Source of the DNA: JALTID01 sp027004335 [NCBI: bacterium]
GTDB taxonomy: Bacteria; JALSQH01
DNA: 5,010 nt
Direction of reading: 5' to 3'
NCBI GenBank assembly: GCA_027004335.1
Contig: JALTID010000059.1
Coordinates: forward strand, 1-5,010
Below the pieces are notes generated by a model that made no database searches, was not told the origin of the DNA, and was given only the letters and a program-made list of their open reading frames with translations. Below are positions 1 through 4,829 of the stretch, one piece after another; within the stretch, counting starts at the first letter, position 1; each line of letters opens with the position of its first letter. The position numbers and the translations under genes are program-made.

Positions 1-847
1 CATGGGAGCCATGCCTTTGGATGAAGCCCTCGCAGACAGATTCGGGTTTATTTTCTATTTTAATAATCCTCATGAAAAGTATCTCAAAGAAATTTTAATG
101 GTAAAAACAAAAGAGGATGCTCCACTTTTAAACAACGAAAATGAGATCTCCCCAGACATTGAATTTATGAAAGCGCTGGGATATTACAGGGTACAGTTAG
201 AAAGGAATCTTGAGGATTCTGAAGATCTGAGGGAGACGGTGCAATCAGCTGAGAGAGCATGGAAAACCTATATGCCCAAGAAATATATCAGCCCAAGAAG
301 ATGGAAAATAATTTACTACAACTTAGCAGGAATTAAGACAATAATGAGGAAATTAACACCAGAGCTGGTGAGCAACACAATTTTTTATTCTCTCCCCTTT
401 GCTGCTTATGATGAAGAGTTTCTTGAAAGATTACAGGAGGTAAAACATCTTCTAAGAAATATCATCGGTGGGAAAAAAAGGATCACCTTTTTCGGTAACC
501 TTCCCGGTGTCCACCAGAGATCCCCATTCAATATTGAAAATGAAAACGATCTTGAAGAATTTCTAAAAGAGCTAAAAGACCTTGGAGATAATTGGGAAGA
601 AATTGCAGAAGAAAGAGGATGGGTGTATATCATGATCCTTAAGTTTTTAATAACAGGATCCTATGATGAACACTCCAGAAACTCTCTCATTAATTTTGCG
701 AGATACTTCGGAAACAACTTACCCACCTCTCTCTGGGGAATTGCCTTCATAGCACAGAAGGCATTAACAAAAAGCAGGTCAAGACTGGACGAGGATCATG
801 TGTTAAGAACATATATTAAAACATTTCTAAGGAGGCGAATGCCATGA
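1..847 (+). CDS. MoxR-type AAA+ ATPase, C-terminal part (5' truncated)
   Basis: The reading frame is open from the left edge, so the Met codons at positions 2 and 11 are internal and the true start lies upstream. Visible residues 5-14 (PLDEALADRF) match the segment after sensor 1 in MoxR-family AAA+ ATPases; Arg13 is the likely arginine finger. A helical lid-like region follows, with SPRRW at 97-101 resembling the conserved S-x-R-x-W of the MoxR lid. Residues about 115-281 go beyond a usual MoxR lid and are charged and helical, with no motif I recognise. Walker A, Walker B and the sensor 1 Asn are not in the window, so ATPase activity is inferred from family membership. MoxR proteins use ATP to remodel or insert cofactors into partners, often through a VWA protein, and one lies two genes downstream. 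The gene overlaps the next by 4 bases (ATGA), implying translational coupling. The family call is fairly sure; the substrate is unknown. Confidence 0.82.
   Translation, partial: MGAMPLDEALADRFGFIFYFNNPHEKYLKEILMVKTKEDAPLLNNENEISPDIEFMKALGYYRVQLERNLEDSEDLRETVQSAERAWKTYMPKKYISPRRWKIIYYNLAGIKTIMRKLTPELVSNTIFYSLPFAAYDEEFLERLQEVKHLLRNIIGGKKRITFFGNLPGVHQRSPFNIENENDLEEFLKELKDLGDNWEEIAEERGWVYIMILKFLITGSYDEHSRNSLINFARYFGNNLPTSLWGIAFIAQKALTKSRSRLDEDHVLRTYIKTFLRRRMP
829..835 (+). promoter_or_regulatory. Strong ribosome binding site for the 844 start
   Basis: AAGGAGG lies 8 bases before the ATG at 844, inside the last codons of the ATPase gene. It is a near-perfect Shine-Dalgarno match at ideal spacing. 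It fixes the start of the second gene and shows that the ATGA overlap is a real gene junction. Confidence 0.85.
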
Positions 848-1932
848 AAATAATTGCCTACAAAGCCGAAGAAATTGAGAAGGGGATATATGCTTTTGTT
901 GAACAGGAAGAAGAGATGAATATTGATGAGATCATGTTCTTCAGGCCGATCATCAAGCATAGCTTTATTTATTCTCTGGAAATGGACCCATTTAACTTTA
1001 TAAAAAACTACTACAAAAATCTTTACAGAAAATTAGGGCTGGGCGAAATAAGTGACAGAATCCTCACTCTTGGATACGATTCTGAGATTACCATGGTAAA
1101 ATTTATCTCAAAAAACTTTCCCCAATTGCTCCCCTTTTTTGTCCAGTACTCTTCAGGTCATTCAGATGTATTCACTCTTCTTGACTCTCTTTTTAAATTT
1201 GCAGAAGACCAAAAGGTAAGAATCTCATTTCCACCACAACTTCTCAATCTTCCACTTCTTGCAGATATTCTGATACCCCCCTTCATAAAAATGGCATTCA
1301 AAAAAGACAAAGCAGATTTTGAACAGGACACATTCTATCAGCCCAGGAGATATATCTCTCATTATAGGAGGGGAAAACATAGGCCACCGCAACCCCCTGC
1401 GCAGAGGAATTTCAACGGCAGCACGCTGCTTTCCTATACACCAAATTATGAAAATATTTCCTTCGCTGTAGGTAAGATAAACAGAAAGAAGAAGGAAGTT
1501 AAATTCATCACAAAAATTCCAGTGAGTAGAGATATATATGGAGCCGACGGGGAAAGCTTTTCGGAGAAATATATCTATTACAATGGCCACGACTATACTT
1601 TTTATTCCGACATTGGGGAGACCGGAGATAGGGATTTTAACTCAATTTTTCTGATAAATTTTATAATCCTGCCATTTTTCAACCTTCAAGCTGATTATGT
1701 AATTATGCCCAAGGAGGATGAAGAAACAGAAGAAGCAAAATGGCCCGGAGCACCATATATGATCTTTCCATGGTATGCCCCTGTAAAGAGGAAAGATGAT
1801 CAACCTGAAATTTTCTCATCTCACCTGCCCAAGTTTGCCAATCAGGATGTTTACTTCCCGGGTGAACAACTATCAATTGTCCCCATAAAAATCAGCAAGC
1901 CTCTCTTTTTCACAAAAATAGTTACTACCTGA
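844..1932 (+). CDS. Unknown protein between MoxR ATPase and metallopeptidase-VWA genes
   Basis: I do not recognise this 362-residue protein. The start at 844 is set by the strong AAGGAGG and the ATGA overlap. It has no signal peptide or clear membrane helix and no Cys, so it is probably cytoplasmic. The N-terminal part (about 1-160) looks mixed or helical, with several aromatic and hydrophobic stretches such as LLNLPLLADILIPPF near 133-147. A basic, Arg/Pro-rich stretch at about 168-190 (RRYISHYRRGKHRPPQPPAQ) looks like a flexible linker. The C-terminal part (about 193-362) has alternating hydrophobic/polar runs, suggesting beta structure, and an acidic patch EDEETEE at 291-297. No catalytic motif is evident. 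Its place between a MoxR ATPase and a VWA protein, with tight junctions on both sides, suggests a third subunit, adaptor or target of that pair. That role is inferred from position only. Base composition resembles its neighbours. Confidence 0.85.
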   Translation: MKIIAYKAEEIEKGIYAFVEQEEEMNIDEIMFFRPIIKHSFIYSLEMDPFNFIKNYYKNLYRKLGLGEISDRILTLGYDSEITMVKFISKNFPQLLPFFVQYSSGHSDVFTLLDSLFKFAEDQKVRISFPPQLLNLPLLADILIPPFIKMAFKKDKADFEQDTFYQPRRYISHYRRGKHRPPQPPAQRNFNGSTLLSYTPNYENISFAVGKINRKKKEVKFITKIPVSRDIYGADGESFSEKYIYYNGHDYTFYSDIGETGDRDFNSIFLINFIILPFFNLQADYVIMPKEDEETEEAKWPGAPYMIFPWYAPVKRKDDQPEIFSSHLPKFANQDVYFPGEQLSIVPIKISKPLFFTKIVTT

Positions 1933-1936
1933 GGAG
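1931..1936 (+). promoter_or_regulatory. Ribosome binding site for the 1941 start
   Basis: GAGGAG overlaps the TGA stop of the preceding gene and sits 4 bases before the ATG at 1941. The spacing is short but usable. A stop codon embedded in the next gene's binding site favours coupled translation of the second and third genes. Confidence 0.7.
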
Positions 1937-1940
1937 AAAA

Positions 1941-3287
1941 ATGAACAGACTTGATATTCAAAAGATACTTAACAAAGCAAAAAAAATCTCCAAAGAACTC
2001 TCCAGACTTATAGAGTATCTCTTATCAAATGTATCCTCCGTTGAACTCGTAGATGATGGAGTTATATCCACCGCCGCTATAATCATGGAGGAAGAACCCA
2101 GAATATTAATAGGAAAAAATTTCTGGAAGAAAAAGGTTAATAGTTACGAGGACGCTGTAACAGTTTTTGCCCATGAAGTTCTCCATCAAATGATCTATAC
2201 AGAAGAGAGAAATGAGCTGGATAACAGATTTAACAATTTTGTGCAGGACATGTGGATCAATGGTTTTCTATTTGCAAAATATGGGATTGGTAAGAAACTA
2301 TTCAGGAGATTATATGGTCACTCTTCACCTTTTTTCCTTCTGACACCCGCGGGGATCATAAAAGAGAAGGAATCAAAAGCAATCAGAGAATTGTTTCCCG
2401 AATCGGATTTGAAAAGGAAAAAAATTAAACAAATCTGGCTGGGAGTTTCTGAGAATAGATTTACACCACCTCAGCTAAAAAGGCACCTTCTGGAACTTTT
2501 CCCACCTCAATTCATACCCCCTTATTTTCTTCCAGTTCGCACCTTTATTAATCACACAAAATTTCAAAAAAACACCTGGATACCTCTGGAAGTTGGAAGA
2601 GGAAGCAGGGGATTTTCTGAAAATGGTGGTGAGTCTCTGGAGGAAGAAATATCAGAGGTTGATTATGTTTACCACATAAACCAGCTGGTAAAGATCATAT
2701 ATAACTATTTCTCTCCTTCCGGGCAGATCAAGCACAGGATGCTGGAGGAAGAAAATGTAAAGGGAGTCATCCCCAGAATAGGAAGAAGAGAAATTATCAC
2801 CATTTCTCAGGGTAAGACCCCGGTTTTCTTTGACAGTCATGAAATATTTAAAACCACAAGCTACAAATCAGCGGGGATCTGCATTGATGTCTCAGGAAGC
2901 ATGGATGAATTCTATCCCCCTCTCTACTCTCTTATGAAAAAACTATCCAGCTTTATTGAGCCGCCATACTATATTTTCTCAACAAAAATATATGAAACAA
3001 CTCTATCTGATCTAAAGAAAAAAATTATAAGAACCACACTGGGAACATCCATAGATATCGTAATTGAGGATGCAAGAAAAAAGAGGTTGAAAAATGTTGT
3101 CATCGTTACAGATACTCTCTGGCATTTATCCGATGAAAATTTAAAATGGGCTAAAAACAATCTCAATTTGATCCTGATCATCATGGATAACACTGGGCCC
3201 GAGGAATATTTTGAGCTGCCCGATAGAAGTGAAGTAATAAGATTAAAGAAAGCAGGAGCCAGTGTTATAAGATGGTTCATAGCTTAA
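1941..3287 (+). CDS. Putative metallopeptidase fused to VWA-like domain (DUF2201 / COG3864 type)
   Basis: The 448-residue protein has two recognisable parts. Residues about 5-170 form the putative metallopeptidase domain (DUF2201_N type). It contains HEVLH at 78-82, a zincin HExxH motif in which His78 and His82 would bind zinc and Glu79 would be catalytic. It is followed by N99-x3-D103-x3-N107, which resembles the family's downstream N-x-A-x-D-x-x-I-N signature; Asp103 could be the third ligand. A less conserved middle, about 170-300, includes a Gly/Glu-rich stretch at 219-237. The C-terminal VWA-like domain, about 305-448, carries the MIDAS motif D316-V-S318-G-S320, a GTS at 368-370 in place of the usual GGTD, and a TD at 390-391 after a hydrophobic strand. 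The metal site thus looks intact. No signal peptide is seen, so it should be cytoplasmic. Such proteins are commonly encoded beside MoxR ATPases, as here, and probably act as their partner. Whether it cleaves proteins is unproven. Confidence 0.88.
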   Translation: MNRLDIQKILNKAKKISKELSRLIEYLLSNVSSVELVDDGVISTAAIIMEEEPRILIGKNFWKKKVNSYEDAVTVFAHEVLHQMIYTEERNELDNRFNNFVQDMWINGFLFAKYGIGKKLFRRLYGHSSPFFLLTPAGIIKEKESKAIRELFPESDLKRKKIKQIWLGVSENRFTPPQLKRHLLELFPPQFIPPYFLPVRTFINHTKFQKNTWIPLEVGRGSRGFSENGGESLEEEISEVDYVYHINQLVKIIYNYFSPSGQIKHRMLEEENVKGVIPRIGRREIITISQGKTPVFFDSHEIFKTTSYKSAGICIDVSGSMDEFYPPLYSLMKKLSSFIEPPYYIFSTKIYETTLSDLKKKIIRTTLGTSIDIVIEDARKKRLKNVVIVTDTLWHLSDENLKWAKNNLNLILIIMDNTGPEEYFELPDRSEVIRLKKAGASVIRWFIA

Positions 3288-3301
3288 CTCAGTCTCTGCA
3301 C

Positions 3302-3331
3302 TTGAACCTTCTCCCAAATCCATGCTATTAT
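3302..3331 (+). promoter_or_regulatory. Sigma70-type promoter with extended -10
   Basis: TTGAAC (3302-3307) and TATTAT (3326-3331) are separated by 18 bases, and TG at 3323-3324 forms an extended -10 (TGCTATTAT). The -10 matches the consensus at 5 of 6 positions and the -35 at 4 of 6. Transcription would begin near 3338, giving a leader of about 15 bases before the ATG at 3353. It lies just after the VWA gene stop, so it probably starts a new transcription unit. Confidence 0.55.
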
Positions 3332-3342
3332 TTAACAACCTC

Positions 3343-3347
3343 GGAAG
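3343..3347 (+). promoter_or_regulatory. Modest ribosome binding site for the 3353 start
   Basis: GGAAG lies 5 bases before the ATG at 3353. It is a modest match, but with the promoter just upstream it supports 3353 over the earlier in-frame ATG at 3272. The nearest Shine-Dalgarno to 3272 (AGGAG at 3254-3258) is 13 bases away. Confidence 0.4.
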
Positions 3348-3352
3348 TAAAA

Positions 3353-3616
3353 ATGAATTATATAAAAGGTTCGCTGATTTCGGCCCTGCTTTTCCCACTG
3401 TTCATCTACAATTTACAGGGGGAAATTAACAAACCTCAACAGTTAGATGCGCAAAAACATATTAAGAAACTTGCTAAGAATTACATAGAGATCCTCAACA
3501 TAGACTACAATCCTGAAAAACTTCTTGAGACTGCTTCGCTTGCATTGGGAATAGTTCAAATAGTAAAGGACAAAAAAGAGGGTGTCCTTATAAAAGATTT
3601 CATGAAAAACATGTAA
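3353..3616 (+). CDS. Small hypothetical protein with hydrophobic N-terminus
   Basis: This 87-residue ORF is not recognised. It begins MNYIKGSLISALLFPLFIY: a short positively charged start and a hydrophobic stretch at about residues 7-20. That fits an uncleaved membrane anchor or a weak signal peptide with no lipobox Cys. The rest is a charged helical region (about 24-87). The frame is open back to 3272, inside the VWA gene, but those 27 extra residues look non-coding (Leu, Ser and His runs) and would overlap the upstream gene. The 3353 start has its own promoter and ribosome binding site. It may be the front part of a longer gene whose remainder appears in other frames at 3624-3910, in which case its stop at 3614-3616 is a frameshift artefact or mutation. 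It may also be a genuine small protein. Confidence 0.5.
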   Translation: MNYIKGSLISALLFPLFIYNLQGEINKPQQLDAQKHIKKLAKNYIEILNIDYNPEKLLETASLALGIVQIVKDKKEGVLIKDFMKNM

Positions 3617-3623
3617 AAACATA

Positions 3624-3910
3624 ATGATAGAAAGCGAGTATCAGATCGAGCAGTTCACTCTGAATGAGGAAACGGAAAAAGATGTTCTTGAGGAGATGCA
3701 TCGGATCTGATCCGTTATTTTGCCATTACCTCAAAGGAGATGGGCTGGGAAGGGTTACAGACACCCTTCATACCATATTTTGATCCAGCACCATTTAAGA
3801 AAGCAAATTTCCTGTTTTTCCCGAAAGATCTTGTAGTTGCACTTTTTCCCCTGAAAAACAATATAAGAATTGAAGAACCTGTAAAAAGTTTCTATTTTGA
3901 CTGGCGGTAA
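3624..3910 (+). pseudogene. Broken hypothetical gene, single-base frameshift near 3702-3706
   Basis: From ATG 3624 the frame reads 28 residues (MIESEYQIEQ..., ending EEMHRI) and stops at TGA 3708-3710. From 3704 a frame one base back reads on without interruption as DLIRYFAITSKEMGWEGLQ... to ...SFYFDWR and a TAA at 3908-3910. Restoring one G to the GG at 3703-3704 joins the parts as HRDLIRYF and gives a product of about 95 residues. The second part reads like real protein: aromatic/hydrophobic segments, a charged tail and no internal stop over 68 codons. I do not recognise the family. No Shine-Dalgarno precedes 3624, so this may be the tail of the gene beginning at 3353 with another indel in the A-rich stretch at 3605-3619. 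The break could be true decay or a sequencing/assembly error; the site is not a classic slippery heptamer, so programmed frameshifting is less likely. Confidence 0.5.
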
Positions 3911-3926
3911 GATTCCCCATAAAAAG

Positions 3927-3954
3927 TTGCATTACTGAAATTTGGGAATAGAAT
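3927..3954 (+). promoter_or_regulatory. Weak promoter upstream of the ureohydrolase gene
   Basis: TTGCAT (3927-3932) and TAGAAT (3949-3954) are spaced by 16 bases. The -10 is good (5 of 6) and the -35 poor (3 of 6). Transcription would start at about 3961-3963, almost on the ATG at 3963. A 6-base inverted repeat, ATTCCC (3912-3917) / GGGAAT (3944-3949), overlaps it and could be an operator, though it is short enough to be chance. Confidence 0.33.
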
Positions 3955-3962
3955 ATTGAAGT

Positions 3963-4829
3963 ATGAAAATAGGTGAATCTCCCTGTGATTTTCTTGGATT
4001 CCAGACGCCTTTTGAAGAAGCTGAATTTATAATACAACCCTTTCCCTATGAGTATACCACCACTTTTGGAAAGGGAACTGGAAACGGCCCGGAAAAAGTC
4101 CTTGAAGTTTCTGACTATCTTGAAATGTACGATGAAGAAAGCGGAACTGAGCCATATCTAAGGGGAATTCGCACAGCAACACCAATTGAACTACCTGAAA
4201 TCAAAGAGGAAAAAGATGTGGAGGAGGCGGGCAGGTTATTTCAAAAATATTTTGAAAATAAGAAAAAGCTACTCACCATAGGTGGTGAACATACAATTAC
4301 ATACCCCATATTTAAAGAAGCCTTAAAGTACTACCCAAAAACTGGTGTTCTCCACCTTGATGCCCATGGTGATCTCAGAGATGAGTATGAGGGTAGCAGA
4401 TACAACCATGCCTGTGTTATGAGGAGAGTTGCAGATACAGGTGTGAAAATGGTTTCAGCAGGGATAAGGGCTATTTCAGCAGAAGAGATGCAATTTATCA
4501 ACAGTAACAGCGACAGGATAAAACTATTTTTAGCTCATCATATATACGATAATACAGGATGGCTGGAAAAAGCCCTCTCCTTTCTTCCCGATGAGGTCTA
4601 TCTTACAATTGATGTGGATGTTTTTGACTCCTCGGTTATCAGGGCAACAGGAACTCCAGAACCTGGAGGGTTAAGCTGGTACTATATATTAAAATTGCTT
4701 AAGAATATCTTCCTCAGAAAAAATGTAATTGCTGTAGATATCGTGGAGATCTGCCCCGATCCGCCCTATGAAGTTTCTACCTATAGTGTAGCTAAACTGA
4801 TTTATAAAATTATCTCTTACTGGAAATGA
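3963..4829 (+). CDS. speB: Agmatinase-family ureohydrolase
   Basis: The 288-residue protein has the family's usual length and motif order. GGEH (107-110) gives metal ligand His110. DAHGDLRD (133-140) gives Asp133, His135 and Asp137. IDVD (216-219) gives Asp217 and Asp219, followed by TGTPEPGGLS (229-238). NH at 148-149 matches the conserved active-site His, and VEICP (261-265) the late conserved Glu. All six Mn ligands are present, so it should be active. The usual DP after the last ligands is DS here (Asp222-Ser223). Agmatinases hydrolyse agmatine to putrescine and urea in the cytoplasm, for polyamine synthesis from arginine. In some thermophiles relatives act instead on N1-aminopropylagmatine to give spermidine, and guanidinobutyrase-like activity is also possible; sequence alone does not decide. 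An in-frame TGA at 3957-3959 excludes an upstream start, and the N-terminal FLGFQTPFEEA fits the family, supporting 3963. No spaced Shine-Dalgarno is present. It overlaps the next ORF by ATGA. Confidence 0.88.
   Translation: MKIGESPCDFLGFQTPFEEAEFIIQPFPYEYTTTFGKGTGNGPEKVLEVSDYLEMYDEESGTEPYLRGIRTATPIELPEIKEEKDVEEAGRLFQKYFENKKKLLTIGGEHTITYPIFKEALKYYPKTGVLHLDAHGDLRDEYEGSRYNHACVMRRVADTGVKMVSAGIRAISAEEMQFINSNSDRIKLFLAHHIYDNTGWLEKALSFLPDEVYLTIDVDVFDSSVIRATGTPEPGGLSWYYILKLLKNIFLRKNVIAVDIVEICPDPPYEVSTYSVAKLIYKIISYWK

What the first reader, a model, noticed from the sequence alone, without database searches (positions are those of the whole stretch)
1..3287. Three-gene unit: MoxR ATPase, unknown protein, metallopeptidase-VWA protein
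The sequence shows an ATGA overlap, then an 8-base gap with the stop codon inside the next ribosome binding site, so the three proteins are probably made in coupled amounts. MoxR-VWA pairs are known remodelling machines, and ternary MoxR-VWA systems with a third variable protein have been proposed as conflict or stress systems. Here the third protein is unrecognised and encoded between the pair. A chaperone-like ATPase with a peptidase-VWA partner and a dedicated third protein would be a coherent, possibly undescribed system. Its function is inference.
Basis: partly seen in the sequence, partly recalled or inferred. Interest (0 to 1): 0.6.

Follow-up and report, generated by a model that had tools for sequence, protein, structure and literature searches.

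The report
MoxR ATPase, adaptor, zinc-peptidase-VWA system
Three neighbouring bacterial genes encode a ring-type ATPase, a fast-changing protein of unknown fold and a zinc-peptidase joined to a VWA domain; the same trio recurs in many distant bacteria, sometimes beside antiviral genes, so it may be an undescribed ATP-driven protein-remodelling or defence machine.

Summary
The window starts inside gene A, whose 5' part lies on another contig; joined, it encodes a 430-aa MoxR-clade AAA+ protein (P-loop GPHGTAKT). It overlaps gene X by ATGA. Eight bases after X starts V, an HExxH peptidase with a VWA MIDAS motif.

The unit is conserved. A scan seeded only with the ATPase gave 54 loci: 25 have A - middle gene - V, 4 have A - middle gene at a contig end, 15 have V-A-third gene, 2 have A-V directly, 8 are incomplete or unclear. 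The middle proteins form a very divergent family (T) with no Pfam or NCBIfam match; an AlphaFold model of one (pLDDT 82) has no convincing PDB match. The window's X is a distant member by weak profile scores that beat shuffle and neighbour controls. T diverges fastest in 78 of 78 pairs. Beyond the seed loci, carrier genomes hold only three more T copies, two of them in A-T-V units.

Best reading: a further kind of MoxR-vWA ternary system, with T as sensor/adaptor and A powering V. A defence role is suggested by verified neighbours (Cas1, HsdS/HsdM, WYL, type ISP) at 7 of 20 loci, not at the window. Function is unproven. Novelty: new variant of a known kind.

The parts
1..847 (+). Gene A, 3' part of a MoxR-clade AAA+ ATPase (LDEALADRF at 17-43); 5' part lies on another contig (G000:C158:2492-3073)
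   Evidence: the subfamily profile finds Midasin, 2r44 and RavA in the PDB
844..847 (+). ATGA stop/start overlap of A and X
   Evidence: a 4-base overlap at 10 of 23 A/T junctions
844..1932 (+). Gene X: middle protein, 362 aa, divergent member of the T family
847..915 (+). N-terminal stretch of X (residues 2-24), predicted beta-hairpin, in register with the T-family profile
   Evidence: the window X model itself is low confidence
1561..1887 (+). C-terminal part of X (residues 240-348) aligning with T profile positions 229-357
   Evidence: score 29.6, best of 100 shuffles 22.9
1931..1936 (+). GAGGAG, likely ribosome-binding site of V overlapping the stop codon of X
   Evidence: sequence
1941..3287 (+). 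Gene V: HExxH metallopeptidase (divergent DUF2201 type) joined to a VWA domain, 448 aa
2172..2186 (+). HEVLH, zinc-binding and catalytic motif
2247..2249 (+). Invariant Asp (D103), possible third zinc ligand
   Evidence: invariant in 8 of 8 rows; the ligand role is inference
2886..2900 (+). DVSGS, MIDAS motif of the VWA domain

Best explanation
A, X and V are the three parts of one machine, a MoxR-vWA ternary system of a kind not among the published ones I could check. Shown: a MoxR-clade AAA+ ATPase, a fast-diverging middle protein (T family, to which the window's X distantly belongs) and a DUF2201-like peptidase-VWA protein are co-encoded in conserved order in many bacterial lineages. Inferred: A forms a ring that uses ATP to remodel the complex; the VWA MIDAS site of V holds T or a client; T, which has no enzyme-like signature, recognises the trigger or client; recognition plus ATP hydrolysis brings the HExxH site of V to bear on a target protein. 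The most likely use is conflict with phages or other invaders, because T behaves like a sensor under diversification and some loci sit beside defence genes. My estimates: conserved three-part system 0.9; X a true T-family member 0.85; defence as main role 0.45.
For: Order: 25 of 54 ATPase-seeded loci are A-T-V (some with a gene cut or broken), 4 more are A-T at a contig end. Copies outside the seed set: 3 in 22 carrier genomes, 2 of them in complete A-T-V units. T family: a profile of 19 reaches 6 further ORFs at E<1e-5. X: it scores 29.6 and its G001 relative 31.0 against an extended T profile that holds neither; 0 of 100 shuffles of each reach that (best 22.9 and 20.1), and the matches are colinear at opposite ends. 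With the profile of 19, the top three of 188 neighbouring ORFs were Calescibacterium's middle protein, the window's X and the ORF directly before V in G026 (its A is on another contig). V: HExxH in all 53 V rows; DUF2201_N over cut-off in two sister V proteins; V profile matches DUF2201 proteins over the HExxH region, probability 96%. T diverges fastest in 78 of 78 pairs (median identity T 9.8, V 26.0, A 34.4%). Patchy: 9 of 290 genomes at E<1e-30, the window's own included. Defence neighbours verified by Pfam at 7 of 20 A-T(-V) loci: L061, L064, L068, L071, L083, L102, L103. 328 PADLOC models matched among 130 neighbour ORFs, 56 among 130 control ORFs of the carrier genomes.
Against: The window's own neighbours (agmatinase by Pfam; macrodomain-, glycosidase- and acyl-CoA-synthetase-like ORFs by eye) and those of Calescibacterium and Goldbacteria (by eye) do not look like defence genes. 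The relation of X to T rests on weak scores (hhalign probabilities 13% and 32%) plus controls and synteny; phmmer of X finds only its G001 relative, and the T profile in a genome search misses X itself. G031's middle protein L049 alone scores no better than chance (16.4). The X model is unusable (pLDDT 30). In G001 the V gene is not seen because the contig ends inside X; a V search there found only a degenerate fragment. One T copy adjoins an ABC-type ATPase ORF and an AbiEii pair instead of A and V. The 24 seed T loci are next to A by construction. Peptidase activity, complex formation and any phenotype are untested.
Confidence: 0.45

Rival explanations
1. A housekeeping maturation chaperone: like CoxD-CoxE or RavA-ViaA, A and V load a metal or assemble one host complex; T is the client-specific adaptor and the HExxH site trims the client.
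For: The MoxR-vWA mechanism is established for such roles (PMC7159879 section 8); the A profile matches RavA and 2r44; neighbours that look like housekeeping genes at the window, Calescibacterium and Goldbacteria (by eye).
Against: No constant client gene: in BLAST clustering of neighbours the only families found in three or more A-T-V loci were the system itself and one that includes WYL regulators (L068, L083, L102; the L083 member was not checked by Pfam). Patchy distribution, several copies in some genomes and the extreme divergence of T fit poorly with a fixed client.
Confidence: 0.3
2. Virus-derived virion-assembly module: a phage MoxR plus peptidase-VWA pair that processes structural proteins, captured by bacteria together with a third protein.
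For: A MoxR and metallopeptidase-vWA pair is described in group 2.2 jumbo phages and proposed for virion assembly (PMC7824862, passages). Three IMG/VR contigs carry A, V and a third gene that matches the T2 profile, clearly in L112 and L113, weakly in L111.
Against: The viral loci are of the T2 type, not the A-T-V type of the window; only 3 viral loci were confirmed out of 57 pattern matches. No phage library was run on the window's neighbours.
Confidence: 0.12
3. T is the substrate: V cleaves T, driven by A, to release an active fragment, as in a protease-activated signal.
For: T is the fastest-diverging part and is co-encoded with a peptidase; the published VMAP model includes proteolytic release of effectors (PMC10907252 passage on Kaur et al.).
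Against: T has no known effector domain; the T model is confident over both ends.
Confidence: 0.1
4. X is an orphan gene that merely sits between A and V in this lineage.
For: No plain BLAST or phmmer match outside its own family.
Against: The same slot is filled in 25 of 54 loci, and X passes profile controls.
Confidence: 0.03

Closest known systems
MoxR-vWA ternary conflict systems (VMAP, iSTAND, FtsH and beta-propeller types; Kaur et al. 2020, PMC7159879)
   Same: MoxR AAA+ ATPase, VWA protein and a dedicated rapidly changing third protein; P-loop GxxxTAKT here against the GXXXTAKS noted for the FtsH and beta-propeller types. Peptidases also occur there: a metallopeptidase on rare occasions among effector domains of VMAP systems, and vWA fused to variable peptidase effectors in iSTAND systems as summarised in PMC12839542 (passage).
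   Different: Here the peptidase is N-terminal to the VWA and present in every V row seen; the third protein matches no Pfam model, VMAP-C included.
MoxR plus metallopeptidase-vWA pair of group 2.2 jumbo phages (PMC7824862, passages)
   Same: The same pair: MoxR ATPase and a VWA protein with an N-terminal metallopeptidase.
   Different: Described as a pair for virion assembly; no third protein is mentioned in the passages read. The bacterial A-T-V type has one.
DUF2201 proteins (PF13203 / PF09967)
   Same: HExxH peptidase domain plus VWA domain; such proteins also sit next to an AAA-like gene (L062, L097; weak A-profile matches; Pfam).
   Different: The window's V reaches neither Pfam cut-off; the DUF2201 genes at L062 and L097 have no T gene between them and their AAA-like neighbour.
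RavA-ViaA and CoxD-CoxE
   Same: MoxR-type ATPase with a VWA partner (PMC7159879 section 8).
   Different: No peptidase domain or T protein (recalled, not tested).

Membership tests
MoxR-clade AAA+ ATPase (gene A) | AAA_3 / MoxR profile match | tested here: met
   G000:C158:2600-2980, 46.6 bits, cut-off 27; the subfamily profile finds RavA and 2r44
MoxR-clade AAA+ ATPase (gene A) | Walker A, Walker B, arginine-finger region | tested here: met
   GPHGTAKT, IDEISR, LDEALADRF (labels recalled); of 60 related rows the sixth P-loop residue is Ala in 45, Gly in 10, no motif match in 5
MoxR-clade AAA+ ATPase (gene A) | Insert in helix 2 | not tested
   no structure of A was predicted
MoxR-vWA ternary systems (general) | Three co-encoded components: MoxR, vWA, third conserved protein | tested here: met
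   25 of 54 loci A-T-V
MoxR-vWA ternary systems (general) | vWA with MIDAS aspartates | tested here: met
   DVSGS and VTDT in the window's V
MoxR-vWA ternary systems (general) | Variable effector domains fused C-terminal to vWA | tested here: not met
   In the window's V the VWA runs to the C-terminus, and in the alignment of V the peptidase precedes the VWA
VMAP-type ternary system | Third protein carries VMAP-C | tested here: not met
   X: no VMAP-C at E<=1; 19 T proteins: none at E<=0.05; the model is in Pfam by name (where it rang in no genome)
iSTAND, FtsH and beta-propeller ternary systems | iSTAND domain, FtsH peptidase gene, or beta-propeller | tested here: inconclusive
   No such Pfam match for X, V or T, but I did not verify that each model is in the library
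DUF2201 (PF13203 + PF09967) | Pfam gathering scores reached | tested here: not met
   Window V: neither model listed at E<=1. Of 7 V proteins, L059 and L102 exceed DUF2201_N (26.7 and 24.8 bits, cut-off 23.2)
DUF2201 (PF13203 + PF09967) | HExxH followed by a conserved N-x3-D-x3-N and a VWA domain | tested here: met
Known anti-phage system | PADLOC model match for A, X or V | tested here: not met
   no hit at E<=1, with A truncated as in the window
Known fold for T | Foldseek or VIA match in the PDB | tested here: inconclusive
   0 Foldseek matches at E<=0.001; best VIA Z 4.0

The most novel reading that the evidence does not exclude
A fifth class of MoxR-vWA ternary immune system: an ATP-gated zinc protease in which a hypervariable T subunit of new fold senses an invader, and the MoxR ring opens the HExxH-VWA subunit; a related version with a SAP-like domain is carried by large viruses and possibly mobile elements.
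Probability: 0.4. Interest if true: 0.8.

Novelty: new variant of a known kind. Interest (0 to 1): 0.55.

Why it matters
The third protein of MoxR-vWA systems is thought to set their specificity. Here is a widely spread T family with no Pfam or NCBIfam model and no convincing PDB match, found so far almost only between an ATPase gene and a peptidase-VWA gene. If it works as proposed it would be a new kind of regulated protease, possibly an immune one, and it gives many natural versions for testing how VWA co-chaperones choose targets.

Tried and rejected
Plain BLAST and phmmer of X against the third proteins found only G001. X in IMG/VR: nothing. T profile in 386 genomes: nothing; that set held no genome with a T close to the profile, and the divergent T proteins of G000, G070, G031 and G166 were missed. 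The positive control is (20 of 22 carrier genomes rang; those of L064 and L096 did not). T profile in IMG/VR could not be run. T model: Foldseek PDB and BFVD gave nothing at E<=0.001; best VIA Z 4.0 to a Mediator chain, not taken as kinship. X model: pLDDT 30, unusable; that its first three elements coincide with those of T (E2-12, E15-24, H27-32) is noted only as consistent. PDB sequence search: nothing for V at E<=0.1; for T two weak hits, E 0.09 and 0.36.

Defence enrichment: the phmmer control (7 of 20 loci against 0 of 20 control stretches) is circular, because the queries came from these or related loci; it is not counted as proof. The PADLOC comparison (328 against 56 models) counts models, not proteins; many models overlap and only the first 25 of each list were shown. 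In the control list 22 of those 25 were PD-T4-6 models. The control set was 130 of 155 control ORFs, from 16 of the 20 stretches fetched, one arbitrary contig each from 20 of the 22 carrier genomes. ORFs under 100 or over 900 aa were left out of both sets. Only 20 neighbour proteins were checked singly by Pfam. The listing of neighbours was cut in the middle.

The 54 loci, all told: 25 A-T-V (in 22 the middle protein is found by the T profile; L060, L064 and L066 only by profile-profile comparison); 4 A-T at a contig end (L057, L069, L073, L074); 15 V-A-third; 2 A-V direct (L079, L092); 2 A-T2 without V in sight (L086, L106); 6 fragments or unclear (L067, L097, L107, L108, L109, L110).

In one search three middle-position proteins had been left in the control set by oversight; they ranked first to third of 188, and the best of the other 185 scored 20.7.
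Full report
What is in the window. The window is the first 5010 bases of contig G000:C59 (13,171 bases) of a draft genome of 1.5 Mb in 262 contigs, completeness 80%. Three genes run on the + strand: A (2-847, cut at its 5' end by the contig edge), X (844-1932, 362 aa) and V (1941-3287, 448 aa). A and X overlap by ATGA at 844-847. The X stop codon overlaps the GAGGAG that precedes V, and 8 bases separate the stop from the ATG of V. The 5' part of A is at the end of contig C158: the last 136 bases of C158 equal the first 136 of C59 at 135 positions. The joined frame encodes 430 aa with P-loop GPHGTAKT, IDEISR and LDEALADRF. That the two contigs adjoin is an inference from this overlap and the continuous homology.

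The proteins one by one. A is a MoxR-clade ATPase: AAA_3 at 46.6 bits against a cut-off of 27, and the subfamily profile finds Midasin, 2r44 and RavA among solved structures. V has HEVLH, an invariant Asp 21 residues after its last His, and a VWA domain with DVSGS and VTDT. It is not listed for the Pfam DUF2201 models, but two sister proteins, L059 and L102, exceed the DUF2201_N cut-off, and a V profile matches DUF2201 proteins at 96% probability over the HExxH region. I call it a divergent DUF2201-type peptidase-VWA protein. X reaches no cut-off in Pfam or NCBIfam and has no PADLOC match at E<=1.

The trio is conserved. The only other genome of the same family held (G001) has A followed by an X homologue (29% identity, E 9e-14) overlapping A; the contig then ends inside X. 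In 290 genomes, the window's own included, the A subfamily stands apart in 9 (E below 1e-30), followed by a gap down to about 1e-16. A scan of genome contigs (84,980 species) with an alignment of the ATPase alone gave 54 loci. Of these 25 have A, a middle gene and V in that order, some with a gene cut or broken; 4 have A and the middle gene and then a contig end; 15 have V, A and a third gene; 2 have A and V directly; 2 have A and a T2 gene without V in sight; 6 are fragments or unclear. Record titles of the A-T-V loci include WOR-3, Endomicrobia, Goldbacteria, Calescibacterium, Desulfuromonas, Myxococcota, Deltaproteobacteria, Oligoflexia and Planctomycetota; most are metagenome bins. All 53 V rows carry HExxH (L047 and L066 are the same gene, and three rows are DUF2201 proteins outside the system).

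One family of middle proteins. Nineteen middle proteins join by BLAST; their profile reaches 6 further ORFs at E<1e-5. More divergent ones need profile comparison. With the profile of the 19, the top three of 188 neighbouring ORFs were the middle protein of Calescibacterium (28.0), the window's X (22.9) and the ORF just before V in G026 (21.2; its A is on another contig); the best of the other 185 scored 20.7. With an extended profile X scored 29.6 (profile 229-357 against X 240-348) and its G001 relative 31.0 (profile 15-110 against 1-92); the best of 100 shuffles of each scored 22.9 and 20.1. Calescibacterium and L064 also beat their shuffles, G031's L049 alone did not stand out (16.4). The two X matches are colinear and cover opposite ends. 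The scores remain weak in absolute terms (hhalign probabilities 13% and 32%), so membership rests on scores, controls and synteny together. Of 13 third proteins of the V-A-T2 type 9 match SAP at E<=0.05, the first member just under the cut-off (22.0 against 23.9 bits). One of them, L095, shares the N-terminal stretch of T, another, L090, shows nothing.

Searching 22 genomes that carry the system with the T profile gave 27 distinct T loci in 20 of them; 24 are the seed loci. Of the 3 others two are complete A-T-V loci (G396:C19 and G392:C63), and one (G392:C63, about 917-2062) adjoins an ABC-type ATPase ORF and an AbiEii gene with an AbiEi-like neighbour below cut-off, about 2 kb before the A of the other unit. 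So few T copies exist outside the seeds, and 2 of 3 lie in the trio. In 386 other genomes nothing rang, but the profile is blind to the divergent T proteins known in four of them.

What T is. The AlphaFold model of a Goldbacteria T (19-row alignment) has pLDDT 82 and pTM 0.78, is rich in strands and starts with two long strands and a helix. Foldseek found nothing at E<=0.001 in the PDB or BFVD; the best VIA Z is 4.0, within what the tool calls common. The model of X itself failed (pLDDT 30). T diverges fastest: in 78 of 78 pairs of 13 complete systems it had the lowest identity (medians T 9.8%, V 26.0%, A 34.4%). The loci were found through A, which favours high identity in A, but not in V over T.

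Function. By analogy with MoxR-vWA systems (PMC7159879 section 8) A should remodel a complex held by the VWA domain of V; T, without an enzyme-like signature, is the natural adaptor or sensor; the HExxH site is the natural output. Neighbours give a hint of conflict. Checked by Pfam: a type I specificity gene at L061, L064 and L103, with N6 methylases at L064 and L103; a Cas4-Cas1 fusion gene at L083; WYL regulators at L068 and L102 (and at the A-V loci L079 and L092); a type ISP enzyme at L071. L083 also has a second Cas1-like ORF on the other side. That is 7 of the 20 A-T(-V) loci whose flanks were examined. PADLOC models matched among 130 neighbour ORFs: 328, against 56 among 130 ORFs from arbitrary stretches of carrier genomes; the limits of this comparison are under Tried and rejected. 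The window's own surroundings do not look defensive. I therefore put the defence role at 0.45.

Known or new. Kaur et al. 2020 describe four MoxR-vWA ternary types (PMC7159879: outline, passages, sections 8 and 22); there a metallopeptidase is mentioned on rare occasions among effector domains. PMC12839542 summarises iSTAND systems as having vWA fused to variable peptidase effectors (passages). Iyer et al. 2021 describe a MoxR and metallopeptidase-vWA pair in jumbo phages without a third protein in the passages read (PMC7824862). Five searches of the PMC library (MoxR with vWA, ternary system, conflict, DUF2201, metallopeptidase, anti-phage defense, defense island, von Willebrand, WYL) listed no paper whose title, or whose passages where I read them, describes an A-T-V trio. 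Most listed papers were seen only as listings; subscription papers and supplementary tables were not searched. I class it as a new variant of a known kind.

Noticed in passing
L115 (G392:C63) 164-3866: A T-family copy beside an ABC-type ATPase ORF (LSGGEK, by eye) and an AbiEii gene with an AbiEi-like neighbour, about 2 kb upstream of a complete A-T-V system.
   Followed up: partly
L054 6185-10457 and L056 889-3500: In G005 and G026 the V gene is followed by a gene that by eye resembles S-adenosylmethionine synthetase; in G005 a short ORF lies between A and V.
   Followed up: no
L062 2-2506, L067 469-1908, L097 2-2544: DUF2201 genes (Pfam), at L062 and L097 next to an AAA-like gene, lie beside or near the ATPase of this system.
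   Followed up: partly
L111, L112, L113 (IMG/VR contigs of 103-181 kb): Viral contigs carry the ATPase, the peptidase-VWA gene and a T2-like third gene, in order A-V-T (L111) or V-A-T2 (L112, L113).
   Followed up: partly
L083 3449-6488 and 14683-15792: An A-T-V system lies between a Cas4-Cas1 fusion gene with repeat-like sequence (by eye) and, on the other side, a second Cas1-like ORF.
   Followed up: partly
window 3601-3960: Between ORF 3272-3616 and the agmatinase gene (3963-4829) all three + frames are broken, with a readable stretch of about 70 aa; possibly a decayed gene.
   Followed up: no
L123 (G001:C63:15226-17038), about 1501-1641: A DUF2201-like fragment with HELMR in place of HExxH near the contig end, probably degenerate and not the V of this system.
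   Followed up: partly
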